Of a DNA stretch of 43,782 nt, positions 4,353-34,382 are shown piece by piece. The notes beneath the pieces were generated by a model. The model was not told the DNA's origin, did not search any database, and saw only the letters and a list, made by a program, of their open reading frames with translations. Origin of the DNA: Gemmatimonadaceae bacterium. Lineage in GTDB: Bacteria; Gemmatimonadota; Gemmatimonadetes; Gemmatimonadales; Gemmatimonadaceae. The stretch lies in the NCBI GenBank assembly GCA_019694735.1, contig JAIBBJ010000190.1, positions 1 to 43,782 of the forward strand. The letters run 5' to 3'. The translations under genes were made by a program, and so were the position numbers. Position 1 is the first letter of the stretch, and every line of letters starts with the position of its first letter.

Positions 4353-5642
4353 TCAGTACAGCAGGTACGGCTTCACGTGCCGCTGGAACGCGACGAGGGC
4401 GGGCTGCACGCGATCGATCACCTCGTCCGGGTCGTCGCCGCGCAGGAGCGCCTCGCGCGCCCACGTGGCGCCGAGCCGCAGGTCGACCGTCCGCGGATTG
4501 AAGCGCGCGGAGTCCGGGGCGACCTTCCGCACCGCCCAGAGCAGGGTCGCCCCGACCCGGGCGAGCTGGGCCCGCTCGCGGTCCTCGATGACGACCCGCA
4601 CCCCCGGGATCTCCTTGCCAGCGAACTTCGCGTCCCCGGGCCGCTGCGGCGTGAACCGGACGGCCTCGAACCGCACGCCGACGAGCCCGCGCTCCGCGAG
4701 GAGGGCCGCCAGCTTCCGGTGGTCGAGCCAGCTCGCGCCGATCTGCTGGAACGGGCGGTCGGTCCCCCGCCCGACGGACAGGTTCGAGCCTTCGAACGGG
4801 ACGAGCGCCGGGTAGATCAGCGCCGACTCGAGCGAGGTCATGGACGGCGACGGGGTCACCCAGGGGAGCTTCGCGTCGTCCCACCACATCGTCCGTCGGT
4901 AGCCGGCCATGCGGACGACCGTGAGCTTCACCGGGATGTGCAGGTCGGCCGCGAAGAAGCGCGCGAGTTCCCCCATCGTCATACCGTGCCGGAGGGGGTG
5001 GGGGTATAATGCGTACGCCTGTCCGCGCCGCGCCGGCGTCGGGTCCTCCGGATTGGCGAGCGCGGAGTCCAGCAGCAGCCCCTCGGCGCGTCCGCCGATC
5101 GGATTCGGTCGGTCGAGCACGACGAACGGGATGTCATGGCGCGCCGCGGCGCGCATCGCATACACCATCAGCCCCACATACGTCCAGGTGCGCGTGCCGA
5201 TGTCCGCGAGGTCGAAGACGAGCCCGTCGAGGTCCCGCAGGAGGCTGTCGGGCGGCGGGACCGTCTCGCGCTGGTACAGCGAGTGCACCATGAGCCCACT
5301 GCGCGCGTCGCGCACGTCCGGCAGGTTCTCGACGTCCTGGTCGCCGCGGATGCCGTGCTCCGGCGAGAACAGACGGACGACCTGGACGTTGTTCCGCCTG
5401 GCGCGCGGGTCGTTCATCAGGAGGTCCACGATCGACCGCCCCTCGGCGTCGACGCCCGTCTGGTTGGTCACGACGGCGATGCGGCGTCCGGCGATCACCT
5501 GGAGCGAGTCGTCCAGCAGCACGGTCATCCCGAGCCGGAAGGCGGGCCGGTCATCGGCGCGCCGGGTGCCCGGGGCCCGCCCCTGCGCGCCCGGTGGCGT
5601 GGCGCAGGCCAGCATCGTCAGGCAGAGCAGCACCGCCCGCAT
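4353..5642 (-). CDS. namZ: NamZ/DUF1343 family exo-beta-N-acetylmuramidase, lipoprotein
   Basis: 429 residues. The DUF1343 family is recognisable from VVTNQTGVDAEGRSIVDLL, RLFSPEHGIRGDQD, DLADIGTRTWTYVGLM, VLDRPNPIGG, PHPLRHGMTMGELA and SNLSVGRGTDRPFQQIG. Members studied in Bacillus and Tannerella are exo-lytic N-acetylmuramidases (NamZ) that release terminal MurNAc from peptidoglycan fragments. The N-terminus MRAVLLCLTMLAC is a lipoprotein signal with a good MLAC lipobox, so the enzyme should be membrane-anchored in the periplasm. A GGGGAGGG ribosome site touches the ATG. It is divergent from the NagZ fusion gene with only 24 bases between start codons, the expected partner for complete breakdown of GlcNAc-MurNAc chains. 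The family call is firm; the activity follows from the family. Confidence 0.93.
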   Translation of the reverse strand: MRAVLLCLTMLACATPPGAQGRAPGTRRADDRPAFRLGMTVLLDDSLQVIAGRRIAVVTNQTGVDAEGRSIVDLLMNDPRARRNNVQVVRLFSPEHGIRGDQDVENLPDVRDARSGLMVHSLYQRETVPPPDSLLRDLDGLVFDLADIGTRTWTYVGLMVYAMRAAARHDIPFVVLDRPNPIGGRAEGLLLDSALANPEDPTPARRGQAYALYPHPLRHGMTMGELARFFAADLHIPVKLTVVRMAGYRRTMWWDDAKLPWVTPSPSMTSLESALIYPALVPFEGSNLSVGRGTDRPFQQIGASWLDHRKLAALLAERGLVGVRFEAVRFTPQRPGDAKFAGKEIPGVRVVIEDRERAQLARVGATLLWAVRKVAPDSARFNPRTVDLRLGATWAREALLRGDDPDEVIDRVQPALVAFQRHVKPYLLY

Positions 5643-5666
5643 CCCTCCCCACTCCCGCACGCCTTG

Positions 5667-8633
<2,967 letters not shown>

Positions 8634-8637
8634 GCCG

Positions 8638-9756
8638 GTGAGCGCGGCCGGCGTACCGGAGCACGCCCGACCGCTGACGGCGCTGCGGTTCCTTGCGGCG
8701 CTGTGGGTGCTGTGCCACCACGCGCTCCCGCAGCAGGGCCCGGTCACGACCGCCATCGGCGCGACCGGCTGGTTGGGCGTCTCGCTGTTCTTCGTGCTGT
8801 CGGGGTTCCTGCTCACGGTCCGCTACGCGCCGGACGGGACGCTGCGGACGACGCCTCGCACCTTCTGGCTCGAGCGGGTGGCGCGCCTTGCGCCCACCTA
8901 CCTGCTCGCGCTCGCCTTTGCGCTCCCCCTCTTCGTGCGTGACGCGCGCGTAGCGGACCACGGAGCGGGACGCATCGCGGCGATCGCGGCCTCCACCGTC
9001 TCCCTGCAGCAGAGCTGGCACCCAGCGCTCGCCTGCCAGTGGGACTGCCCGGCGTGGTCGCTGTCGGTGGAGGCCTGGTTCTATTTCGCGTTCCCGCTCC
9101 TGGTCGCTCTCGTCGGCGCGTGGCTCCTGCGGGACTCCGCGGCCCGCCCGGGTCGTGGCGCGATGCTCCTCGCCGGCGCGATGGGGGCATCCGCGGTGGT
9201 GTTCCCGTGGCTGGAGCGCGCCAGCGCCAGCTGGCCGGCCCCCGTCTACTCGCTCTCGCCACTCGCCCGCTGGCCGGAGTTCGTCGCCGGGATGGCGCTG
9301 TCGGCGCTCATCGGGACCCGGCGACCGCGGTTCGCCGGGCCGGGTGTGGTCGCGCTGCTCGCGGGCACTGCCTGGTTGGCCGTCGTGGTGACCCTTCGCG
9401 GACCGATCATGGACGCGGGGCTCCACCTGTTGCCGCCGAGCCTGCCGGGCTTCGTGCTGCTCGTCGCCGGGTGCTGGCTGCTCCGCGAGCATCCCGCGTT
9501 CGGCCTCGGTGCACCGTGGCTCGTCGCGCTCGGCGAGGCGTCGTACGCGCTCTACCTGTTCCATGCCCCGCTCCACGGGTACCTCCTCGCCGCGGCGAAC
9601 CGGGTCCTCGGCCGCGGGTACGACGGGACCTGGGGGCTCTTCGCCGGATATGGTGCCCTCGCGATCCTGCTGTCGGTGGCGGTCCACCGCGGGTTCGAGC
9701 GTCCCTGGCGGACCCGCCTCCGCAGCCGCTGGGGGCTGGGCCAGCGGGCGGCGTGA
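8638..9756 (+). CDS. Acyltransferase family 3 (OafA/YrhL-type) membrane protein
   Basis: 372 residues with a GTG start four bases after the NagZ-fusion stop, so the two are co-transcribed and probably translationally coupled. The N-terminus matches acyltransferase family 3: RPLTALRFLAALWVLCHH, with His27/His28 in the conserved catalytic position, then FFVLSGFLLTVRY and FWLERVARLAPTYLLAL. About ten membrane segments follow. Members move acetyl or other acyl groups from the cytoplasmic pool onto extracytoplasmic sugars such as O-antigen, peptidoglycan or glucans. There is no C-terminal SGNH domain. The position in a peptidoglycan-salvage gene run suggests a cell-wall sugar as acceptor, but the family is too varied to be sure. 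Confidence 0.88.
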   Translation: MSAAGVPEHARPLTALRFLAALWVLCHHALPQQGPVTTAIGATGWLGVSLFFVLSGFLLTVRYAPDGTLRTTPRTFWLERVARLAPTYLLALAFALPLFVRDARVADHGAGRIAAIAASTVSLQQSWHPALACQWDCPAWSLSVEAWFYFAFPLLVALVGAWLLRDSAARPGRGAMLLAGAMGASAVVFPWLERASASWPAPVYSLSPLARWPEFVAGMALSALIGTRRPRFAGPGVVALLAGTAWLAVVVTLRGPIMDAGLHLLPPSLPGFVLLVAGCWLLREHPAFGLGAPWLVALGEASYALYLFHAPLHGYLLAAANRVLGRGYDGTWGLFAGYGALAILLSVAVHRGFERPWRTRLRSRWGLGQRAA

Positions 9757-9769
9757 CCGTCCCGCTGGC

Positions 9770-9797
9770 TTGTCCCCGGAACCCCGAACCGTATATT
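9770..9797 (+). promoter_or_regulatory. Predicted sigma-70 promoter of the Fe-S carrier gene
   Basis: A -35-like TTGTCC (9770-9775) and a -10-like TATATT (9792-9797) are separated by 16 bases. They sit in the 100-base gap between the acyltransferase stop and the ATG at 9857, which would give a leader of about 50 bases. This is one of the two best promoter pairs in the window. Confidence 0.6.
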
Positions 9798-9856
9798 CCG
9801 GATTGGTAGGAACGCGCCGCGACAGCGGCCCCCTAGCGCCCACATCGGAGGGTCAG

Positions 9857-10213
9857 ATGAGCACGATGAATACGCCTGAGGTCGCGGTGACCATCACGTC
9901 GGCCGCGGCGACCGAGGTCAAGAAGTTCATGAGCGCCGAGAACGTCGCCCCCGAGGTCGGTGGGCTCCGCGTGAGCGTGCAGCCCGGCGGCTGCTCGGGC
10001 TTCAAGTACAGCCTCCTCATCGAGGACAAGCCGGCCGACGACGACACCGTGCTCGCCCAGGACGGATTCAATGTCTTCGTGGACCCGTTCTCGATGCAGT
10101 ACCTGAACGGGGTCGCCATCGACTACGTGACCTCGATGCAGGGCTCAGGCTTCACGTTCAAGAACCCGAACGCCACGGGCGGCTGCGGCTGCGGCTCGAG
10201 CTTCTCGGCCTGA
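9857..10213 (+). CDS. A-type iron-sulfur carrier protein (HesB/IscA/ErpA family)
   Basis: 118 residues. The three conserved cysteines of the family are visible: one in QPGGCSGFKYS, then a C-terminal pair in GGCGCGSSFSA (C-x-C). The body ITSAAATEVKKFM...DGFNVFVDPFSMQYLNGVAIDYV is typical. These cytoplasmic proteins carry Fe-S clusters to apo-proteins such as dehydratases and respiratory subunits. The ATG at 9857 has a GGAGG seven bases upstream and its own predicted promoter, so it is probably an independent housekeeping gene sitting inside the amino-sugar cluster. Strong hairpins immediately follow it. ErpA, IscA and SufA cannot be separated by sequence alone. Confidence 0.92.
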   Translation: MSTMNTPEVAVTITSAAATEVKKFMSAENVAPEVGGLRVSVQPGGCSGFKYSLLIEDKPADDDTVLAQDGFNVFVDPFSMQYLNGVAIDYVTSMQGSGFTFKNPNATGGCGCGSSFSA

Positions 10214-10216
10214 GCG

Positions 10217-12202
10217 GTGGCGAATGAACGAGGGCCGCGCGCGGAGCGCGCGGCCGGCGTGCGCGAGGCCCGCGGTCCCGAGCAGGGACGCGGGCCTCGC
10301 GCCGTTCCCGCCGCCGAACAACGGGAACGGATCCGCACGCGGGTGTTCGAGGACCACGGCGCGCTCGCGCGCGAAGTCGCCCAGCGCGTCGCCGCCACGA
10401 TCCGCCGGGCGAACGCCGAGGGTCGGCGCGCCGTGCTCGGCCTCGCGACCGGCTCCACGCCGATCGGCGTCTACCGGGAGCTCGTCCGGATGCACCGCGA
10501 GGAGGGGCTGAGCTTCGCCCAGGTCGAGACGTTCAATCTCGACGAGTACCTCCCGATGCCGCCGGACAGTCCGCACGCGTACCACCGGTTCATGTGGACG
10601 CACCTCTTCTCGCAGATCGACATCCCGAAGGCGCAGGTGCACCTGCTGGACGGCACCGTGCCCCCCGAGCGCGTCGCCGAGCATTGCGCGGCGTACGAGG
10701 CGGCGATCGCGGCGGCCGGGGGCATCGACTTCCAGCTGCTCGGCATCGGCAAGACGGGGCACATCGGCTTCAACGAGCCCGGTTCCGGGCTCGACAGCCG
10801 CACGCGGCGGATCCTCCTCGACCGCATCACGCGACGCGACGCGGCCAGCGGCTTCTTCTCCGAGCGCGCGGTGCCGCGCGAAGCGATCACGATGGGCGTC
10901 GCGACGATCCTCGCCGCGCGCGAGGTCGCGATCCTCGCCACCGGGGAGCACAAGGCGGCCATCGTGCGGCGCGCGGTCGAGGGCGAGGTGGACCACCAGG
11001 TCCCGGCGACCTTCCTGCAGCGCCACGGCGCGGCGACGTTCTACTGCGACACGGCGGCGGCCGCCGACCTCACGCGGATCGCGACCCCGTGGCTGGTGGA
11101 CGAGGTCCAGTGGACCCCGGAGCTCGAGGTCCGCGCGGTCATCTGGCTCGCCGAGACCACCGGCCGGGCGATCCTCAAGCTGTCCGAGGGCGACTACACC
11201 GAGCACCACCTGGGCTCGCTGCTCGCTCGGCACGGGGAGGCGGGCACGGTCAACGGCAAGGTGTTCTGGTCGCTGAACGACCGGATCCGGGGCCGGGCGA
11301 AGCTCCCCCACTCGGCCCGCATCGTCGTCTTCTCGCCCCATCCGGACGACGACGTCATCTCCATGGGCGGCATCCTCCGGAAGCTGGTCGAGAACGGCAA
11401 CCACGTCGTGGTCGCCTACATGACCAGCGGCAACATCGCGGTCTTCGACCACGACGTCACGCGGCACCTCGACGTGCTCGAGCGCGTCGCCCGCGAACGG
11501 CGGCTCGACGCCGCCTTCGGCGCGTACGCCGGCGCCGTGCGTGACGCCATCGCGGCCAAGCAACCCGGCGAGCCGGACGCGCCGCTCGTCGCCGACATGA
11601 AGCGCATCATCCGCGAGTCCGAGGCCGTGAGCGGCATCGAGACCGTCGGCCTGTCGGCGGAGCACGCGCGCTTCCTCGACCTGCCGTTCTACCACACCGG
11701 CACGATCGAGAAGAAGCCGATCGGCCCCGAGGACGTGGCGATCGTCCGGCGGCTCCTCGAAGCCGAGCGCCCGCACTACGCATTCGTCGCCGGCGACCTC
11801 AGTGACCCGCATGGGACGCACCGGATGTGCAAGGAGGCGATCGACCGGGCGCTGACGGAACTCCATCCGGCGCGCCCGCGCGGCGTGCAGGAGCCGCCGC
11901 CCGAGTACAGCGACAAGACCGCCGGGACGTTCACCCCCGAGGTCTGGCTGTATCGCGGCGCCTGGCAGGAGTGGCCGGTCGCCGAGGCGACGTGGCTCGT
12001 CCCGCTGTCGCGCGAGGAGCTGAAGCTGAAGATCCAGGCGATCTTCAAGCACCAGTCGCAGAAGGACTCCGCCCCGTTCCCGGGGCAGGACGACCGCGAG
12101 TTCTGGCAGCGGGTCGAGGCCCGCAACACCGGCACCGCAGGGCTGCTCGACCGGCTCGGCCTCGCCGAGTACAACGCCATCGAGGCCTATGTCGTCGACT
12201 GA
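10217..12202 (+). CDS. nagB: Glucosamine-6-phosphate deaminase fused to a PIG-L/LmbE-type deacetylase
   Basis: 661 residues if the GTG at 10217 is the start. Family similarity begins only near codon 38 (ERIRTRVFEDHG), and the first 42 codons are unusually rich in A/T third bases, so a later GTG (10259, less likely 10343) is possible. Residues about 40-300 are NagB: GLATGSTP phosphate loop, NLDEY (Asp109, the E. coli Asp72 position), GIGKTGHIGFNEPGS with His182 and Glu187. Thr180 replaces E. coli Asp141. Residues about 368-600 are PIG-L: HPDDD at 375-379 and a later DPHGTHR, the metal ligands. NagB converts glucosamine-6-P to fructose-6-P and ammonia. The deacetylase half could supply NagA activity, which is inference. 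The gene overlaps the symporter start by 14 bases. Confidence 0.9.
   Translation: MANERGPRAERAAGVREARGPEQGRGPRAVPAAEQRERIRTRVFEDHGALAREVAQRVAATIRRANAEGRRAVLGLATGSTPIGVYRELVRMHREEGLSFAQVETFNLDEYLPMPPDSPHAYHRFMWTHLFSQIDIPKAQVHLLDGTVPPERVAEHCAAYEAAIAAAGGIDFQLLGIGKTGHIGFNEPGSGLDSRTRRILLDRITRRDAASGFFSERAVPREAITMGVATILAAREVAILATGEHKAAIVRRAVEGEVDHQVPATFLQRHGAATFYCDTAAAADLTRIATPWLVDEVQWTPELEVRAVIWLAETTGRAILKLSEGDYTEHHLGSLLARHGEAGTVNGKVFWSLNDRIRGRAKLPHSARIVVFSPHPDDDVISMGGILRKLVENGNHVVVAYMTSGNIAVFDHDVTRHLDVLERVARERRLDAAFGAYAGAVRDAIAAKQPGEPDAPLVADMKRIIRESEAVSGIETVGLSAEHARFLDLPFYHTGTIEKKPIGPEDVAIVRRLLEAERPHYAFVAGDLSDPHGTHRMCKEAIDRALTELHPARPRGVQEPPPEYSDKTAGTFTPEVWLYRGAWQEWPVAEATWLVPLSREELKLKIQAIFKHQSQKDSAPFPGQDDREFWQRVEARNTGTAGLLDRLGLAEYNAIEAYVVD
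10233..10255. terminator. GC hairpin just after the Fe-S carrier gene
   Basis: Perfect 10-base arms GGCCGCGCGC and GCGCGCGGCC with a GGA loop, starting 20 bases after the TGA at 10211-10213. There is no T-tract. It lies in the N-terminal codons of the NagB frame if that frame starts at 10217. Confidence 0.45.
10261..10302. terminator. Very strong 18-base-pair hairpin between the Fe-S carrier and NagB genes
   Basis: Arms 10261-10274 and 10289-10302 pair over 14 bases. After a one-base bulge (10275) a further TCCC/GGGA pairs, leaving a GAGCA loop. No T-tract follows. It resembles the other GC hairpins that end genes in this window, so it probably terminates or attenuates the transcript, although it overlaps the possible 5' end of the next reading frame. 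Confidence 0.55.
10302..10330. promoter_or_regulatory. Operator-like inverted repeat CCGTTCCCG-N11-CGGGAACGG
   Basis: Perfect 9-base arms at 10302-10310 and 10322-10330, centre-to-centre 20 bases, directly after the strong hairpin and before the conserved part of the NagB protein. The spacing suits a dimeric repressor on two helical turns. An RNA stem is the alternative. No promoter box is evident beside it. Confidence 0.35.
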
Positions 12203-13724
12203 CGCGGCCGCCGCCTTCACGGGGCTCGACTGGGCGGTCCTCATCGCGTACCTCGCCGGCACCATCGCCCTCGGCGTCTGGCTGGGCCGTGACCAGAAGG
12301 ACGCCAAGGACTACTTCGTCGCCGGCGGGACCATCCCGTGGTGGGCGGTGCTGTTCTCCATCGTGGCGACCGAGACCAGCGCGCTCACCTTCATCTCGAT
12401 CCCCGGCCTCGCCTACCTCGGCGACTTCACGTTCCTGCAGGTCGCGACCGGCTACCTGCTCGGGCGGATCGTCGTCGCCTACACGCTGCTCCCGCGCTAC
12501 GCCGGCGGCGAACTCGTCACGGCGTATGCGCTGCTGGAGAGACGGTTCGGGCTCGCGACCCGCCGCTTCGCCTCGGTGACCTTCATGGCCACGCGCGCCT
12601 TCGGCGACTCGGTCCGGGTGTTCGCCACCGCGATCCCGATCGCGCTGATCATCGGCCCGATCGTGCCGGCCGAGTGGCTGACGCCGGTCTCGATCCTCGC
12701 GCTCGGCGTCGCGACGCTCATCTACACGTACGAGGGCGGCATGCGCGCGGTCGTCTGGACCGACGTGATCCAGACCGTGATCTATCTCTTCGGCGGCGTG
12801 GGTGCGATCGTCCTGCTCGGGCAGGGCGTCGAGGGCGGCTGGGCCGCGATCCTCGCCGATGCGGGCGCGGCCGGCAAGCTCCGCCTGCTCGACCTCTCCA
12901 CGGACATCGGCAAGCCGCACACCCTCTTCGCCGGCGTGCTCGGCGGCGGATTCCTGGCCATGGCCTCGCACGGCGCGGACCAGCTCATCGTGCAGCGGCT
13001 GCTCACGGCGGCGGACCTCCGGGATTCCCGGCGCGCCCTCATCGGCTCCGGCCTCGCCGTGATGGCCCAGTTCGCCCTGTTCCTCTTCATCGGGATCGGG
13101 CTCTGGAAGTTCTATCAGGGGCGCGCCTTCCCCGCCCCGGACAAGATCTTCCCGACCTTCATCGTCGAGGAGATGCCGTCGGGGATGACCGGCGTCGTGA
13201 TCGCGGCGATCCTCGCCGCGGCGATGAGCACGATCAGCGGCTCGCTCAACTCGCTGGCCGCCGCGACCACGCACGACCTCTGGATCCCCCTCAAGGGCCA
13301 GGGCACGCCGGCCCAGCTCCTCCGGGTCTCGAAGGTCTTCACGTTGATCTGGGCCGTGATCCTCATCGGCGGGGCGCTGCTGTACAAGGCCGAGGGCACG
13401 CCGGTCGTGGTCATCGCCCTCTCTATCGCCTCCTTCACGTATGGCGGCCTCCTGGGCGGCTTCTTCCTCGCCCTGCTCTGGCCGCGCGCGGCCCAGCGCG
13501 ACGCGATCCTCGCGATGGCCGTCGGCATCTCCGTCATGAGCGTCGTCGTCTTCGCCGGCCGGCTCGGCGCGGCGTTCCCCGCCCTCGCGGGGCCCCTCGC
13601 CCCGGTGACCGGCATCGCCTGGCCGTGGTTCGTGCTGATCGGTACCGCGATCACGCTCGCCACGGGTATCTTGTCCTCGTTCACGCACGCGGCGCCCTCG
13701 GCGCCCCGACCCTCCCGCAACTGA
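12189..13724 (+). CDS. Sodium:solute symporter (SSS family), probable amino-sugar importer
   Basis: 511 residues with 13-14 hydrophobic segments. The SSS pattern is clear: GRDQKDAKDYFVAGGTIPWWAV, TETSALTFISIPG, YEGGMRAVVWTDVIQ, HGADQLIVQR and AAAMSTISGSLNSLA. It couples solute import to sodium entry across the inner membrane. The ATG at 12189 lies 14 bases inside the end of the NagB-PIG-L gene and the kinase gene starts eight bases after it, so all three are one operon. In Tannerella an SSS protein (MurT) next to a BadF-family kinase (MurK) imports MurNAc, so MurNAc or GlcNAc is the most likely cargo. Sialic acid or another sugar is the main alternative. Confidence 0.9.
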   Translation: MSSTDAAAAFTGLDWAVLIAYLAGTIALGVWLGRDQKDAKDYFVAGGTIPWWAVLFSIVATETSALTFISIPGLAYLGDFTFLQVATGYLLGRIVVAYTLLPRYAGGELVTAYALLERRFGLATRRFASVTFMATRAFGDSVRVFATAIPIALIIGPIVPAEWLTPVSILALGVATLIYTYEGGMRAVVWTDVIQTVIYLFGGVGAIVLLGQGVEGGWAAILADAGAAGKLRLLDLSTDIGKPHTLFAGVLGGGFLAMASHGADQLIVQRLLTAADLRDSRRALIGSGLAVMAQFALFLFIGIGLWKFYQGRAFPAPDKIFPTFIVEEMPSGMTGVVIAAILAAAMSTISGSLNSLAAATTHDLWIPLKGQGTPAQLLRVSKVFTLIWAVILIGGALLYKAEGTPVVVIALSIASFTYGGLLGGFFLALLWPRAAQRDAILAMAVGISVMSVVVFAGRLGAAFPALAGPLAPVTGIAWPWFVLIGTAITLATGILSSFTHAAPSAPRPSRN

Positions 13725-13732
13725 GAAGTCCC

Positions 13733-14653
13733 GTGGCGCATCTCGTCGTCGGTGTCGATGGTGGTGGCAGTAAGACCCAGGTCCTCGTGGCCGAGGGACG
13801 GAAGGAACTCGCGACCCTCACCGGGGGCCCGAGCGCGATCCGGCCGGGCGAGGCGCTGCACTCGGCCGAGGTGATCGGCGCGCTCGTCCGCGACGCGCTC
13901 GCGGTGGCCGAGCGCGACGTGAAGCCGCGGACGCTCGTGGTCGGCGTCGCCGGCGCCGGCCGCGAGAAGGAGCGTCGCACCCTGCTCCGTGCCCTCGAGG
14001 GCGAACAGCTCGCCGACGAGGTCGTGGTGGTCACCGACGGGGAGATCGCGCTGGCCGACGCGTTCGGCGACGGCCCGGGCATCCTGCTCGTCTCCGGCAC
14101 GGGCTCGGTGGCCTACGGGCGCGGGCCGACCGGGACCCTTCTCCGCGCGGGGGGCTGGGGGCCGCACTGCGGCGACGAGGGCAGCGGCGCCTGGATCGGC
14201 CGGCGCGCGCTCAGCGTCGTCACGGCCTCGCACGACGGCCGAGAGCCGGAGACGCGGCTCATCGGCGCGATCCTGACGGCGCTCGAGCTGGAGGAGGTGG
14301 ACGACCTCATCGGCTGGGCGTCCGCTGCGACCCCGAAGGACCTCGCCGCGCTCGCGATGCCGGTGCTGACGCTCGCCAGCGAGCGCGACCTGCGCGCGAA
14401 CTCGATCTGCACCATCGCCGCCGAGGAGCTCGTGCTGCACGTGCGCACGCTGGCCCGCCAGTTGTTCGTGGACGAGCGCGCGGCGGTCCCCGTCGCCCTG
14501 GCGGGCGGGATGCTGCAGCGCGGGTCGTTCCTGCGCCGGCTGGTGGAGCACCGGCTCAAGACGGCCGTGCCGGGCTCACACCTCCACGGGGACGAGGTCG
14601 TGCCGGCGCGCGGCGCGGTGAAGCTCGCGAAGCGGGCGGTCGCGACGGCCTGA
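13733..14653 (+). CDS. BadF/BadG/BcrA-family sugar kinase, probable GlcNAc/MurNAc kinase
   Basis: 306 residues from a GTG at 13733, eight bases after the symporter stop. The ATPase fold is marked by VGVDGGGSKTQ (phosphate-1 loop) at the N-terminus, VTDGEIALADAF, LVSGTGSVAYG (phosphate-2), GGWGPHCGDEGSGAWIG and VALAGGML near the C-terminus. Members phosphorylate N-acetylglucosamine, MurNAc (Tannerella MurK) or glucosamine. A kinase is needed here because the SSS importer delivers unphosphorylated sugar, and NagB needs a 6-phosphate. Without a MurQ etherase in the window, MurNAc use would depend on a gene elsewhere. It is the last gene of the rightward run, ending before a strong hairpin. Confidence 0.88.
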   Translation: MAHLVVGVDGGGSKTQVLVAEGRKELATLTGGPSAIRPGEALHSAEVIGALVRDALAVAERDVKPRTLVVGVAGAGREKERRTLLRALEGEQLADEVVVVTDGEIALADAFGDGPGILLVSGTGSVAYGRGPTGTLLRAGGWGPHCGDEGSGAWIGRRALSVVTASHDGREPETRLIGAILTALELEEVDDLIGWASAATPKDLAALAMPVLTLASERDLRANSICTIAAEELVLHVRTLARQLFVDERAAVPVALAGGMLQRGSFLRRLVEHRLKTAVPGSHLHGDEVVPARGAVKLAKRAVATA

Positions 14654-28310: not shown

Positions 28311-29711
<1,401 letters not shown>

Positions 29712-29723
29712 GGTCGCGCCCCC

Positions 29724-32700
29724 TTACGCCGTGGCCGACGCCGTCGGCGCCGGATGGTTGACCTTCTTCAAGTAGACCACCGCCGTGAAGGTGTTGAGCT
29801 CCTCGAACACGTGGTACGCCCTGCGGTCCTTCGCCCACTTCGCGACCGACCAGTTCTCGTCGGCCGCGTCGCCGAAGACGATCGCGCGCGACGGACAGGC
29901 CTGCGCGCACGCCGTCGTGAACTCGTCGGCCTGCAGCTCGCGGTGCTCCAGCGCGGCGCGGTTCTCCGCCTCCTTGATGCGCTGCACGCAGAACGAGCAC
30001 TTCTCCATGATGCCCTTCTGCCGCACCGTCACGTCCGGGTTCAGCTGCCAGTGCAGCGGCTCCGGGAACGCGTACTGCGTGCGCGTCGGGTCGCCGTAGC
30101 CGAACCAGTTGTAGTAGCGGACCTTGTACGGGCAGTTGTTCGAGCAGTAGCGCGTGCCGACGCAGCGGTTGTAGACCTGGACGTTGAGCCCGTTCGGCGC
30201 GTGGTACGTCGCGTAGACGGGGCACACCGGCTCGCAGGGCGCGTTGCCGCAGTGCTGGCACATCATCGGGATGAACCGCGTCTCGAAGTCCGGATGCTCC
30301 GGATCGAACTTCACGTCCTTCGGCTCGCGGTCGATCTCCCAGTAGCGCTCGAGCCGGATCCACGCCATCTCGCGCGACCGCGTGATGTTGGCGCCGAAGC
30401 CGGTGCGGTCGGGGAGGATCTGGGCGCCCTGCCAGGCCGCGCCCACCGTCGGGATGTTGTTCTCGGCGTAGCACGCGGTGACGCACGCCGAGCAGCCGGT
30501 GCACTTGGCCAGGTCGATGGTCATGGCCCAGCGGCGCTTCGCGGCGCCCGACCAGTGCTCGGGATCGTACTGCCCGATGTCCTTCGACCCCGGCACGCCG
30601 AGGTCACCCTGCGCGTCGTTCGCCGTCGGCGACCGGAGCCCCGGGAGGAACTCGGTGCTCGCCTGCCCGTCGAAGTGGTGCGCGTGCTCCTCCTCGCCCG
30701 CGAGCAGCGCCGGGAGCGCGATCGCCTGCGCGATGCCGCGCCCGTGCTGGCGGCCCGAGCCCTCGATGGTGACGATGCGCTCGTTGCCGCTCGCCTTCGT
30801 CACGCTCGCCTTGGTGACGGCGAGCGCCGCGCCGCCGGCACGGTCCTCGGCGGCCGCGAGCAGCGCCCAGGCGTTCTGCCCGGCGACCGCATAGCGCCCC
30901 GCCGCCGTGTGGCCGCGGCCGAGCGCGATCGCGATCGTGTCCGGCCGGAGACCGATGTAGCCGAAGGCCGGCGCCGTCAGCTCACCGGCGGCCGTCTTCA
31001 CCGTCACGTGGTCGCCGTCCTCGACGCCGAGCGCCATCGCGGTCTCGGGGTGCAGCTCGACGACGGTCTGCCAGACGATCTTGGTGACCGGGTCCGGGAG
31101 CTCCTGGAGCCACGGCTTGTTCGCGCCGCGGCCATCGCCGAGGGTCGGCGACGGGTAGGCGATGAGCGTGTATTCGCCGGCCTGCCCGGTCACCACCATG
31201 CTGCGCGTCGCCGCGCGCGCCGTCGCCGTGCGCGTGGCGCTCGAGCCGCTGGTGATCGCCGTGGGCAGCGCGTTCTTCAGGTTCTGGTTCCCGCCGACGC
31301 GGCCCGCCAGGTACGCGCGGTAGTCCGCGTAGGCGTAGCGCGACGCGAGCGACGGGTCGCCCTTCGCCGCGGCAAGGAGCACGTCGGCGGTCTGCCGCGT
31401 GTCGAACACCGGGTCCATCGTCGGCTGCTGGAGGCCGAGGGTGCCGCGCACCGCCTCGGCGTCACCCCAGCTCTCGAGCCCGTGGTGGTCCGGCAGCACG
31501 AGGTCGCAGAGCGACGTCGTCTCGTCGGGGACGCTGGAGAAGGAGACCTTGAACGGCACCTTCGCCATCGCGGCGGCGAAGCCGACGCCCGGCGCGGTGG
31601 TGTACGCGGGGTTCGCATGGCGAACGAACAGGACCGGCACGTCGCCCCCGTTCATCCGCTCGGCGAGGGCGCGCATCTCGGCATGGCCGGCGACGCCCTC
31701 GAACGCGAGGTAGCCGTCGTTCGGCTTGATGGTGCGCCCGACGTTGCCCCGGGCCTTGTTGAGCTCGGCGACCGCAGTCGCCAGCTCCCCGGCGTCCTGG
31801 CCGTAGCCGCCGGCGAGGAGCGCGCTCGCCCGGGCCCCGCGGACCTCGGCGATGAGCCCCTCGACGATCTTCACGCCGATGCCCGCCGCCTCGGCGGCCT
31901 GCGCCGCGGTCGCCTTGCCGGCGATCGCGTTGACGATCGCGAGTTCGGCGCCCGGCTTGGCCGGGATCCACTGGTCGGCGTTGAGGCCGGTGAGCGAGCG
32001 GCGCGCGCCGACATAGATGAAGCGCGGCGCACCCTCGACCTTCCCCCGGGCCTCGGCGAACGCGAGCTGCTGCGGAACGGGGAGCCCCCACCCGTCGAGG
32101 AAGTCGGCGCCGAACGAGACGATCAGGTCCGCCGCGCCGAAATCGACGTGCGGCCACGAGGCGCCGTAGGCCGCCTTGTACGCCTGCGCGACCGCGACCG
32201 GCGCCTCGGCGTCATAGCTGATGTGCGGCGCGATGCCGAACCCCGCGAGCACCCCGTCGAGGAACGCCGGGAACGAGCCCACCTCGTGCTGGTTCACGAA
32301 CGCGACCTTGGCGCCCTGCCCGCGCGACTTGATCTCGCCGAGCTTGGCCTGCAGGGTCTGCATCGCCTCGGCCCACGTCGTCGGGACGAGCTTGTCCCCC
32401 TCGCGCTTCATGGGCCCGCGGAAGCGGTCGGGGTTGTAGAGCCCCTGGAGGCTCGACTGGCCGCGCGCGCAGAGGGCGCCCTTGTTGACCGGGTGGGCCG
32501 GGTTGCCCTCGGCCTTGATCGCGCGGCCGTCACGCGTCTCGATGATCAGGCCGCACCCGGCCGCGCACTCGCGGCAGGTCGTGGCGTAATAGTTCGAGAC
32601 GCCCGGCGTGGTCTGGTCGGGCGAGACGAGGTACGGGATGAGCTTCTCGACGTCGCCGGTGCCGCAACCCACGGCGGCCGTGGCCGCACCGGTCACGGAG

Positions 32701-32771
32701 AGGACCTTGAGGAAGTCGCGGCGCTTGACGCCCGACTGGCCCAGGGTCGCGTCCTTGGTATCAGGGGTCAT
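29724..32771 (-). CDS. actB: Alternative Complex III subunit ActB (molybdopterin-family/Fe-S fusion, Tat substrate)
   Basis: 1015 residues. The N-terminus has a Tat signal, VKRRDFLKVLSVTGAA (twin Arg17-18). Residues about 60-700 form a molybdopterin-oxidoreductase-like domain with an N-terminal cluster motif, Cys66, Cys69, Cys73 and Cys101. ActB normally lacks the Mo cofactor itself. Residues about 740-1000 are an NrfC-like ferredoxin domain with four cysteine groups: CTGCSACVTAC (from Cys757), CQHCGNAPCEPVC, CVGTRYCSNNCP and CSFCVQRI. These carry electrons from quinol to the heme subunits. It starts seven bases after the actA stop. The whole fusion length fits the family. Confidence 0.94.
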   Translation of the reverse strand: MTPDTKDATLGQSGVKRRDFLKVLSVTGAATAAVGCGTGDVEKLIPYLVSPDQTTPGVSNYYATTCRECAAGCGLIIETRDGRAIKAEGNPAHPVNKGALCARGQSSLQGLYNPDRFRGPMKREGDKLVPTTWAEAMQTLQAKLGEIKSRGQGAKVAFVNQHEVGSFPAFLDGVLAGFGIAPHISYDAEAPVAVAQAYKAAYGASWPHVDFGAADLIVSFGADFLDGWGLPVPQQLAFAEARGKVEGAPRFIYVGARRSLTGLNADQWIPAKPGAELAIVNAIAGKATAAQAAEAAGIGVKIVEGLIAEVRGARASALLAGGYGQDAGELATAVAELNKARGNVGRTIKPNDGYLAFEGVAGHAEMRALAERMNGGDVPVLFVRHANPAYTTAPGVGFAAAMAKVPFKVSFSSVPDETTSLCDLVLPDHHGLESWGDAEAVRGTLGLQQPTMDPVFDTRQTADVLLAAAKGDPSLASRYAYADYRAYLAGRVGGNQNLKNALPTAITSGSSATRTATARAATRSMVVTGQAGEYTLIAYPSPTLGDGRGANKPWLQELPDPVTKIVWQTVVELHPETAMALGVEDGDHVTVKTAAGELTAPAFGYIGLRPDTIAIALGRGHTAAGRYAVAGQNAWALLAAAEDRAGGAALAVTKASVTKASGNERIVTIEGSGRQHGRGIAQAIALPALLAGEEEHAHHFDGQASTEFLPGLRSPTANDAQGDLGVPGSKDIGQYDPEHWSGAAKRRWAMTIDLAKCTGCSACVTACYAENNIPTVGAAWQGAQILPDRTGFGANITRSREMAWIRLERYWEIDREPKDVKFDPEHPDFETRFIPMMCQHCGNAPCEPVCPVYATYHAPNGLNVQVYNRCVGTRYCSNNCPYKVRYYNWFGYGDPTRTQYAFPEPLHWQLNPDVTVRQKGIMEKCSFCVQRIKEAENRAALEHRELQADEFTTACAQACPSRAIVFGDAADENWSVAKWAKDRRAYHVFEELNTFTAVVYLKKVNHPAPTASATA

Positions 32772-32778
32772 CAGGGGC

Positions 32779-33501
32779 TCAGTAGTGGCAGGTGGCGCAG
32801 TCGTAGGTCGCCTTCTTGCGCGGGAGCGCGAGCGTGGCGGAATCCGGCTCGTACCCGGCGGCCCGCATCCCCTCGGCCGGCGAGTAGCCGTTGACGTGGC
32901 AGGTCACGCACCAGCCCATGTTGAGCGACTGCGCCTGGAAGACCTGCGACATGTTGTTGACCTGGCCGTGGCACGTCTGGCAGGTCACGCCGGCGTTGAC
33001 GTGGCGCATGTGCGGGAAGTGCACGTACTCGGGCACCTTGTGCACGCGGACCCACGGCACGGGCTGCTTCTTGTTCCAGTAGTCGGCGAGCTTCGCGATC
33101 TCGGGACGGCCCGCGCCGACGATGTTGTGGCACCCCATGCACGTGCCGACCGCGGGAAGGCCCGGGTCCGGCGACGTCGAGGCGGCATTGTGGCAGAACG
33201 CGCAGTTCATCTTGAGCGAGTTCACGTGCACCGGGTGCGGGAACTTCACCGGCTGCACCGGCGACCGGCCGATGCCGCCGCCGACGTAGAACGTGTAGCC
33301 GCTCGCGCCGCTGTACGCCCACGGGCCCGGCTTCGCCTTGCCGAAGGCCTCGCGGTTCGCCGCCTCGGTCGCGGTCTCGGTGGTGCCCGCGGCCGGGGCC
33401 TGCGGGGCGCTCTGGGTGCCCGCGTAGGCGGACATCATGGTCGCGGCCATCGCGATGGCCACCATGCCTGGGATGACGACCCACTTCCTGCGACCGGTCA
33501 T
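32779..33501 (-). CDS. actA: Alternative Complex III subunit ActA (pentaheme cytochrome c)
   Basis: 240 residues. One N-terminal membrane anchor/signal (WVVIPGMVAIAMAATMM) is followed by five heme c sites: CAFCH, CMGCH, CQTCH, CVTCH and CATCH, the last at the C-terminus, with extra His residues (FPHPVHV, FPHMRHV) for bis-His ligation. This matches the pentaheme ActA subunit that takes electrons from ActB. The ATG at 33501 is chosen over the longer frame because the upstream region carries two palindromic operator-like elements. First gene of actABCDEF. A perfect CRP/FNR-type palindrome is centred about 52 bases before the start codon. Confidence 0.93.
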   Translation of the reverse strand: MTGRRKWVVIPGMVAIAMAATMMSAYAGTQSAPQAPAAGTTETATEAANREAFGKAKPGPWAYSGASGYTFYVGGGIGRSPVQPVKFPHPVHVNSLKMNCAFCHNAASTSPDPGLPAVGTCMGCHNIVGAGRPEIAKLADYWNKKQPVPWVRVHKVPEYVHFPHMRHVNAGVTCQTCHGQVNNMSQVFQAQSLNMGWCVTCHVNGYSPAEGMRAAGYEPDSATLALPRKKATYDCATCHY

Positions 33502-33528
33502 GCGCAAGACTCGGAGAGAGGGAAATCC

Positions 33529-33541
33529 GAACGGTCCGTTC
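33529..33541. promoter_or_regulatory. Second palindrome GAACGG-T-CCGTTC in the actA leader
   Basis: A perfect 6+1+6 palindrome between the CRP-like site and the actA start, one base from that site. It may be a second operator or the core promoter region, which has no good -10 box of its own. Confidence 0.35.
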
Positions 33542-33542
33542 C

Positions 33543-33564
33543 CCTTGTGAAGGTTTTCACAAGG
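33543..33564. promoter_or_regulatory. Perfect CRP/FNR-family site TGTGA-N6-TCACA upstream of the ACIII operon
   Basis: TGTGA (33546-33550), six bases AGGTTT, TCACA (33557-33561), extended to a 9-base inverted repeat (CCTTGTGAA/TTCACAAGG) with a 4-base centre. This is the full consensus of CRP and close to that of FNR-family regulators. It stands in the 125-base gap upstream of actA, centred about 52 bases from the ATG, and no good -10 is present, as at activator-dependent promoters. Confidence 0.7.
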
Positions 33565-33626
33565 TGCAAAGCCTCGGAAAAATGGCCGGGGGCCGCGCAC
33601 ACCGCAAGTGAGGGCCCGTGGCGACG

Positions 33627-34382
33627 TTAGCCGCCCTCATCCAGCCCACGCTTCACCCGGTCGATCGTGCGCAGCACCTCGATGCCCATCGCGCGGACGA
33701 GGGTCAGCTCCCGCGCGTCGGGACCGGCACGATTCAGCAGTGAACGCACGGTGCGCATGATGTGTTCCGGGCTTCGCGTGCGATAGAACGCGATCGCCGC
33801 CAGCGCCCGGTCCACGTCCCCCAGCGCGCGCTCCCACTCGTCCTGCTTCGGCAGCGGCGCGTGATGCTTGTGTCGCTCGATCGTGCGCGTCGCGTCGCCG
33901 GCGGCGAGGTGCAGCTCGTAGGCCGCCACGAGCACCGCCTGCGCCAGGTTCAGCGAGCTGTGCTCCGTGGTCGGGATGGTGCAGAGCACCTGCCCGCGAT
34001 CGATGGCCTCGTTGGGCAGCCCGTGGTCCTCCTGCCCGAAGAGCAGCGCGACCGGCCCGTCCGCCGCCTTCTCGAGGACGACCGGGGCGAGGGCCCGGGG
34101 TGTCGTGAGCGGCCAGCGGTGCGCGCGGCGCTTCCCGCCGAACGCCGCGACGTAGACACAGTCGGCGAGCGCCGCGTCGAGCGTGTCGAAGTGCCGGATC
34201 CGCTCGACCACGTCCCGCGTGCCATGGGCGACGCCCTCGATCCGCCAGGGATCGTACGCCACCGGCTGCACCAGCCGCAGGTCGCGTAGGCCCATGTTCT
34301 TCATGACCCGCACCGTGCCGGCGAGGTTGACGGGGTCCTGCGGCTTGTGGAAGACGACCACGACCTGATGGAGGATCGACAT
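33627..34382 (-). CDS. trmJ: SPOUT-family tRNA 2'-O-methyltransferase TrmJ
   Basis: 251 residues. SPOUT trefoil-knot motifs are visible: motif 1 in NLAGTVRVMKNMGLRDLRLVQP, motif 2 LLFGQEDHGLPNE, and motif 3 CTIPTTEHSSLNLAQAVLVAAYEL. TrmJ methylates the 2'-OH at position 32 of the tRNA anticodon loop using AdoMet. The C-terminal helical extension (about 165-251) fits TrmJ rather than plain TrmL. The start ATG at 34382 has a TAACTT box eight bases upstream and no ribosome site, suggesting a leaderless mRNA. It diverges from the DedA gene only 39 bases away and is followed by the ACIII upstream region. Confidence 0.9.
   Translation of the reverse strand: MSILHQVVVVFHKPQDPVNLAGTVRVMKNMGLRDLRLVQPVAYDPWRIEGVAHGTRDVVERIRHFDTLDAALADCVYVAAFGGKRRAHRWPLTTPRALAPVVLEKAADGPVALLFGQEDHGLPNEAIDRGQVLCTIPTTEHSSLNLAQAVLVAAYELHLAAGDATRTIERHKHHAPLPKQDEWERALGDVDRALAAIAFYRTRSPEHIMRTVRSLLNRAGPDARELTLVRAMGIEVLRTIDRVKRGLDEGG

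What the first reader, a model, noticed from the sequence alone, without database searches (positions are those of the whole stretch)
4353..14653. Compact muropeptide/amino-sugar salvage locus with fused enzymes
NamZ and a NagZ fusion are divergent neighbours. The rightward run then gives an acyltransferase, a NagB-PIG-L fusion, an SSS symporter and a BadF-family kinase. Bacillus keeps murQ, amiE, nagZ and namZ together, and Tannerella pairs an SSS transporter (MurT) with a BadF kinase (MurK). Here both layouts seem merged, in a probable Gemmatimonadota genome. The genes form a logical route from peptidoglycan fragments to fructose-6-phosphate.
Basis: partly seen in the sequence, partly recalled or inferred. 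Interest (0 to 1): 0.72.

Follow-up and report, generated by a model that had tools for sequence, protein, structure and literature searches.

The report
Cell-wall sugar salvage with swapped deacetylase
A bacterium of the phylum Gemmatimonadota keeps genes for recycling cell-wall sugars side by side, and in this whole class the usual enzyme for one step (NagA) is missing, apparently replaced by an unrelated deacetylase fused to the enzyme that carries out the next step.

Summary
The locus is real and conserved. NamZ diverges from a NagZ/beta-lactamase-fold fusion, followed by a NagB-PIG-L fusion, an SSS symporter and a BadF kinase. ErpA - NagB-PIG-L - SSS - BadF recurs in 19 of 28 sampled loci of the same family (13 genera); NamZ-NagZ-NagB-PIG-L-SSS recurs in two more families. 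The acyltransferase is not conserved. The NagB-PIG-L fusion is an existing NCBIfam family (PRK02122) whose PIG-L half has no assigned job. MurQ and AnmK lie elsewhere in the genome.

New here: the route to fructose-6-phosphate needs a GlcNAc-6-phosphate deacetylase, and NagA is missing. 0 of 96 fusion-bearing Gemmatimonadota genomes have it, against 6 of 7 with unfused NagB. In Bacteroidota the figures are 13/56 and 8/12. Planctomycetota are equivocal. In several Bacteroidota the fusion lies in a murQ-nagZ-anmK neighbourhood of NagA-free genomes. Best reading: the PIG-L domain replaces NagA, giving one bifunctional deacetylase-deaminase. Inferred, not shown. Against it: three same-genus genomes have MurQ but neither NagA nor the fusion, and some Bacteroidota have both side by side.

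The parts
4353..5642 (-). NamZ, exo-beta-N-acetylmuramidase (DUF1343), with an N-terminal hydrophobic, lipoprotein-like signal (MRAVLLCLTMLAC)
   Evidence: PF07075 208 bits, PF20732 135 bits; closest solved structure 4k05, 179 bits; N-terminus read from sequence
5667..8633 (+). GH3 NagZ-type beta-N-acetylglucosaminidase fused to a serine beta-lactamase/DD-peptidase-fold domain; signal-like N-terminus
   Evidence: PF00933 269 bits, PF00144 233 bits; KHFPGHG, TDAMDM, SLTK, YSD, HTG motifs present; best solved match 6k5j
8638..9756 (+). acyltransferase family 3 membrane protein; not part of the conserved set
   Evidence: PF01757 93 bits; no homologue found in 60 related loci
9857..10213 (+).
   Evidence: TIGR00049 125 bits, ErpA 118 bits; 19 of 28 family loci
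10255..10305 (+). strong hairpin between erpA and the conserved start of nagB
   Evidence: predicted -45.9 kcal/mol
10217..12202 (+). NagB-PIG-L fusion (PRK02122): NagB domain residues 38-286, PIG-L domain 365-661; start codon uncertain (GTG 10217 or 10259)
   Evidence: NF002557 860 bits; model pLDDT 88.4, pTM 0.85; Z 38.0, rmsd 1.1 over 242 residues to NagB 2bkv; Z 23.3, rmsd 2.9 over 209 residues to deacetylase BshB 6p2t
12189..13724 (+). SSS (sodium:solute) symporter, overlaps the stop of NagB-PIG-L by 14 bases
   Evidence: PF00474 128 bits, TIGR00813 199 bits
13733..14653 (+). BadF/BadG-family sugar kinase, closest solved relative MurNAc/GlcNAc kinase 8zo3
   Evidence: PF01869 107 bits; NagK_SO3507 96 bits, below its cut-off; 8zo3 129 bits
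3694..4353 (-). flanking CDP-alcohol phosphatidyltransferase, conserved flank of the cluster in the family
   Evidence: PF01066 51 bits; 17 of the 19 cluster-bearing family loci

Best explanation
This is a salvage and catabolism locus for peptidoglycan amino sugars. Outside the cytoplasm, NamZ and the NagZ fusion release MurNAc and GlcNAc from glycan fragments (inferred from families and signal-like N-termini). The SSS symporter imports an amino sugar and the BadF kinase phosphorylates it. MurNAc-6-phosphate is turned into GlcNAc-6-phosphate by MurQ, encoded with AnmK elsewhere in the genome. The PIG-L domain of the NagB-PIG-L fusion then removes the acetyl group, in place of the absent NagA, and the NagB domain of the same chain converts glucosamine-6-phosphate to fructose-6-phosphate and ammonia. 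Shown here: the gene content, its conservation, the presence of MurQ, the absence of NagA from the fusion-bearing Gemmatimonadota and most fusion-bearing Bacteroidota sampled, and intact motifs and folds of both fusion domains. Inferred: the substrates of the SSS, BadF and PIG-L parts.
For: Synteny: ErpA, NagB-PIG-L, SSS and BadF in a row in 19 of 28 family loci from 13 genera; NamZ, NagZ, NagB-PIG-L and SSS (with BadF where the contig reaches) also in families f4 and f5. Fusion over cut-off in 96 of 150 phylum genomes, MurQ in 137, canonical NagA in none. NagA at E<=1e-30, fusion against standalone NagB: Gemmatimonadota 0/96 v 6/7, Bacteroidota 13/56 v 8/12; stratified test over three phyla p=8e-7, and 0.019 without Gemmatimonadota. 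A second NagA profile found all 5 positive controls and none in 75 other genomes. Seven Bacteroidota loci place murQ near the fusion; in Flagellimonas the neighbourhood is murQ-deoR | nagB-pigL - GHL10 - unknown - MFS - nagZ - anmK; all six such genomes searched lack NagA. SPHPDDD and DPHGTH motifs are kept in the fusion proteins; H375, D377, D378, H532 and H535 are invariant in 55 sequences. The PIG-L domain matches BshB, diacetylchitobiose deacetylase and MshB.
Against: G004, G073 and G129 (same genus) have MurQ but no NagA, no NagB and no fusion; G004 and G129 also have AnmK. So loss of NagA does not always come with the fusion, and an unknown deacetylase or a dead end is possible. In Bacteroidota G265 (L174; a sialic-acid-type cluster) and Hymenobacter cavernae (L131) the fusion sits directly beside NagA with its PIG-L motif intact. 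Planctomycetota show no clear difference (5/10 v 18/29 at E<=1e-30; 0/10 v 9/29 over cut-off). Genomes are related, so the p-values do not count independent events. Sensitivity of the NagA search is not perfect: the Bacillus subtilis control, whose NagA structure is 2vhl, is not found at E<=1e-20. No substrate has been assayed.
Confidence: 0.58

Rival explanations
1. The fusion's PIG-L half acts on something else (a GlcNAc conjugate, a thiol precursor or cell-envelope glycan), and GlcNAc-6-phosphate is deacetylated by an unrecognised enzyme shared by the whole class.
For: Same-genus genomes G004, G073 and G129 have MurQ but neither NagA nor the fusion, with AnmK in the two checked. Fusions beside NagA keep the full PIG-L motif. 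PIG-L-fold enzymes act on varied substrates, one of them (GalB) not a deacetylase.
Against: A fusion to NagB, whose substrate is the product of this very deacetylation, is hard to explain otherwise. The fusion sits with murQ, nagZ and anmK in NagA-free Bacteroidota.
Confidence: 0.22
2. Order reversed: PIG-L deacetylates free GlcNAc to glucosamine, the BadF kinase is a glucosamine kinase, and NagB finishes, as in the archaeal chitin route with a PIG-L-type deacetylase.
For: The nearest sequence relatives of the PIG-L domain with solved structures are archaeal diacetylchitobiose deacetylases. A BadF kinase is adjacent.
Against: The MurQ product is already phosphorylated, so this route would strand it. 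In the Flagellimonas neighbourhood no BadF-type kinase was seen. The kinase matches a MurNAc/GlcNAc kinase best.
Confidence: 0.12
3. On the import step (compatible with the best explanation otherwise): the SSS/BadF pair is a GlcNAc transporter-kinase pair rather than a Tannerella-like MurT/MurK pair, so the locus feeds on GlcNAc, and MurNAc enters only through separate AnmK/MurQ recycling.
For: The only NCBIfam hit of the kinase is NagK_SO3507, below its cut-off. The sugar-site motif is GGWG, as in the dual kinase 8zo3, not the S-P-L reported for Tannerella MurK (PMC10465942). MurQ is not in the locus.
Against: NamZ, which releases MurNAc, neighbours the pair in 10 of 19 family clusters. 8zo3 phosphorylates MurNAc too, by its name.
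Confidence: 0.4

Closest known systems
NCBIfam PRK02122 / NF002557, glucosamine-6-phosphate deaminase-like protein
   Same: Same two-domain architecture over almost the full model (860 bits against a cut-off of 384).
   Different: The family name covers only the deaminase half; no role is given to the PIG-L half.
Tannerella forsythia murTKQ operon and peptidoglycan-recycling cluster (PMC7670621, PMC5790795)
   Same: SSS-family transporter next to a BadF-type kinase, with peptidoglycan enzymes nearby.
   Different: No murQ in the locus here; the kinase lacks the S-P-L lactyl pocket signature; a NagB-PIG-L fusion sits in the run.
Bacillus subtilis murQ-amiE-nagZ-namZ cluster (recalled, not tested here)
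   Same: NagZ-type and NamZ enzymes adjacent.
   Different: Divergent rather than co-directional; no amiE or murQ; NagZ carries a beta-lactamase-fold domain instead.
Canonical nagA-nagB amino-sugar catabolism
   Same: Same proposed chemistry: GlcNAc-6P to GlcN-6P to Fru-6P.
   Different: NagA (amidohydrolase) is absent; a non-homologous PIG-L domain is fused to NagB.
Archaeal diacetylchitobiose deacetylase (PIG-L family; 3wl4, 3we7, 8bgo)
   Same: PIG-L fold and metal motif; acts on GlcNAc units.
   Different: Stand-alone; unphosphorylated disaccharide substrate.

Membership tests
PRK02122 (NagB-PIG-L) | Full-length match above the curated score | tested here: met
   860 bits, model positions 23-648 of 653, cut-off 384
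NagB deaminase | NagB fold and conserved active-site residues | tested here: met
   Z 38.0, rmsd 1.1 to 2bkv; S80, D109, H182, E187, R197 and K246 conserved in at least 54 of 55 fusion sequences (R197 and K246); the position of E. coli D141 is Thr; mapping to E. coli numbering is from general knowledge
PIG-L deacetylase | HPDD and downstream H-x-x-H metal motif, deacetylase fold | tested here: met
   PF02585 59.5 bits; motifs kept; Z 23.3 to BshB 6p2t
PIG-L as GlcNAc-6-phosphate deacetylase | Deacetylates GlcNAc-6-phosphate | not testable with these tools
   Only indirect: NagA absence and gene neighbourhood
NagA | A NagA-family protein in the genome | tested here: not met
   Own genome: nothing over cut-off with TIGR00221 and nothing at E<=1e-12 with a second profile
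NamZ | NamZ N- and C-terminal domains | tested here: met
   PF07075 208 bits and PF20732 135 bits
NagZ (GH3 beta-N-acetylglucosaminidase) | GH3 domain with KHFPGHG and TDxMDM motifs | tested here: met
   substrate not tested
Tannerella MurTKQ system | SSS transporter, BadF kinase and MurQ in one operon | tested here: not met
   SSS and BadF adjacent, MurQ on another contig
Tannerella-type MurK | Small residues S-P-L opening the lactyl pocket (PMC10465942) | tested here: inconclusive
   The kinase has GGWG like the dual kinase 8zo3; residue mapping by motif only, not by structure

The most novel reading that the evidence does not exclude
The NagB-PIG-L protein is a bifunctional GlcNAc-6-phosphate deacetylase-deaminase in which a metal-dependent PIG-L domain has replaced the unrelated NagA amidohydrolase throughout the window's class of Gemmatimonadota and in most Bacteroidota that carry the fusion. 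That would close the missing NagA step in peptidoglycan and GlcNAc salvage for many species.
Probability: 0.58. Interest if true: 0.65.

Novelty: new variant of a known kind. Interest (0 to 1): 0.52.

Why it matters
NagA is taken as the standard step between MurQ and NagB, and genome-based metabolic models call a GlcNAc or MurNAc pathway by its presence. If the PIG-L domain is a non-homologous replacement, such models miss the pathway in Gemmatimonadota and much of Bacteroidota, and a large family annotated only as 'glucosamine-6-phosphate deaminase-like' gains a function for its second half. It is testable with one purified protein and one E. coli nagA mutant.

Tried and rejected
Literature searches for NagB with PIG-L, and for glucosamine-6-phosphate deaminase with PIG-L or LmbE, found nothing; this covers only the open-access library held. 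Whether the fusion's PIG-L motif is degenerate where NagA is adjacent was tested as a possible confirmation: it is intact, so this did not help the hypothesis. Stand-alone PIG-L genes as the deacetylase in fusion-free same-genus genomes: two kinds, a ~243-aa type and a larger type, also occur in fusion-bearing relatives, so they do not explain the difference. The Streptomyces GlcNAc-6P dehydratase NagS (PMC12680351) was considered as another fate of GlcNAc-6P; the paper reports orthologues only in Streptomycetaceae, so it was set aside. Kinase substrate could not be settled by sequence. A first structure model with 10 sequences was mediocre (pLDDT 73.8) and was replaced by one with 55.

Full report
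What was checked. The window is a whole contig (C32) of a 3.52-Mb draft genome, 97% complete. A same-genus genome matches a named Gemmatimonadaceae MAG (L003/G126 equals WYBP01), so the phylum guess is right. Starts were refined by reading the sequence: NamZ at 5642, the NagZ fusion at 5667, ErpA at 9857 and BadF at about 13733. NamZ and NagZ start codons are only 24 bases apart. The SSS gene overlaps the end of NagB-PIG-L by 14 bases, which suggests coupled translation.

An ErpA/IscA-type gene (TIGR00049 125 bits) lies between the acyltransferase and NagB-PIG-L. MurQ is not in the locus, but the genome has it on contig C83, next to AnmK. NagA is absent.

Conservation. Regions around the fusion gene were fetched from 60 genomes of the phylum and compared with the window's proteins. 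In the same family (28 loci), ErpA, NagB-PIG-L, SSS and BadF stand in a row in 19 loci from 13 genera, usually with the beta-lactamase-fold gene before them; NamZ is also adjacent in 10. Families f4 and f5 have NamZ, NagZ, a beta-lactamase-fold protein (not detected in one locus), NagB-PIG-L, SSS and BadF without ErpA (L055, L061, L063; L056 and L064 partly cut by contig ends). In families f2, f3 and f7 the fusion stands apart from these genes. The acyltransferase was seen in none of the 60 loci. NamZ occurs in 142 and the fusion in 96 of 150 phylum genomes.

The fusion. NagB-PIG-L is NCBIfam PRK02122. It occurs in Gemmatimonadota, Planctomycetota, Bacteroidota, Balneolota and an Ignavibacteria MAG. 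A model from 55 sequences (pLDDT 88.4, pTM 0.85) shows a NagB domain (Z 38.0 to B. subtilis NagB 2bkv) and a PIG-L domain (Z 23.3 to BshB 6p2t, about 21 to archaeal diacetylchitobiose deacetylases, 17.9 to MshB). Metal-site motifs are kept in the fusion proteins of several phyla. A helical insertion in the PIG-L domain carries invariant K448, K462 and R466; that these bind the sugar phosphate is speculation.

The missing step. TIGR00221 (NagA) is over its cut-off in none of the 150 Gemmatimonadota genomes; only the outlying family f9 has long sub-cut-off matches, and f9 has unfused NagB and lacks a MurQ match over cut-off. Counting NagA at E<=1e-30, fusion genomes against genomes with standalone NagB only: Gemmatimonadota 0/96 v 6/7; Bacteroidota 13/56 v 8/12 (p=0.006); Planctomycetota 5/10 v 18/29 (p=0.71; over cut-off 0/10 v 9/29, p=0.08). 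The stratified test gives p=8e-7, and 0.019 without Gemmatimonadota. These p-values treat related genomes as independent and are therefore optimistic. A second profile made from 12 diverse NagA-like proteins found all 5 positive controls and nothing at E<=1e-12 in 75 other genomes. One caveat: the B. subtilis control was not recovered at E<=1e-20 with TIGR00221, so the search can miss real NagA proteins.

Independent neighbourhood evidence. In seven named Bacteroidota loci (Flagellimonas, Muriicola, Robiginitalea, Maribacter, Allomuricauda and two Saprospiraceae) murQ lies within a few kilobases of the fusion. In Flagellimonas the neighbourhood reads murQ-deoR | nagB-pigL - GHL10 - unknown - MFS - nagZ - anmK. 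The six of these genomes that could be searched lack NagA. There, MurQ makes GlcNAc-6-phosphate and the NagB half uses glucosamine-6-phosphate, so the PIG-L half is the obvious candidate for the step between.

Evidence against. In the window's own genus, G004, G073 and G129 have MurQ but no NagA, NagB or fusion, with AnmK in the two checked. Either GlcNAc-6-phosphate is a dead end there or another deacetylase exists. In G265 and Hymenobacter cavernae the fusion and NagA are neighbours, in G265 within a sialic-acid-type cluster, and the PIG-L motif is intact.

Transport and kinase. The BadF kinase is closest to the solved MurNAc/GlcNAc kinase 8zo3 (129 bits). It keeps GGWG where Tannerella MurK is reported to have S-P-L (PMC10465942), so it looks like the dual type. 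The SSS substrate is open. Tannerella's operon (PMC7670621, PMC5790795) is the nearest experimentally studied parallel.

Conclusion. The locus is an ordinary kind of salvage cluster with a conserved, not accidental, order. The notable part is the predicted replacement of NagA by a PIG-L domain fused to NagB. No paper saying so was found in the searched library, which is limited to open-access papers.

Noticed in passing
window 9857-10213: An ErpA/IscA-type Fe-S insertion gene is conserved inside this amino-sugar cluster in 19 of 28 family loci, with no evident link to amino sugars.
   Followed up: partly
window 10217-10315: Two strong GC hairpins between erpA and the conserved start of NagB (-45.9 kcal/mol for 10255-10305); no ATG is available, so the NagB start codon is uncertain.
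   Followed up: partly
L003 / L077 (G126, MAG GEM1): A same-genus genome carries a NagB-PIG-L copy 75% identical to one from a Planctomycetaceae MAG and only 55% to the window's, without the cluster; probably horizontal transfer.
   Followed up: no
L169 (G000:C83) 174-2215: murQ-anmK pair of the window's genome beside a gamma-glutamyltranspeptidase gene, the same arrangement as in L172.
   Followed up: partly
window 28311-33636: NrfD, molybdopterin/4Fe-4S and multihaem cytochrome genes, resembling an alternative complex III cluster.
   Followed up: no
L070 (G069): The NagB-PIG-L relative is divergent or degenerate: two weak partial matches and no HPDD-bearing fusion ORF.
   Followed up: no
L087, L091: Phycisphaeraceae loci with an extra NagB-like stretch after the NagB-PIG-L match, perhaps a duplicated or second NagB domain.
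   Followed up: no
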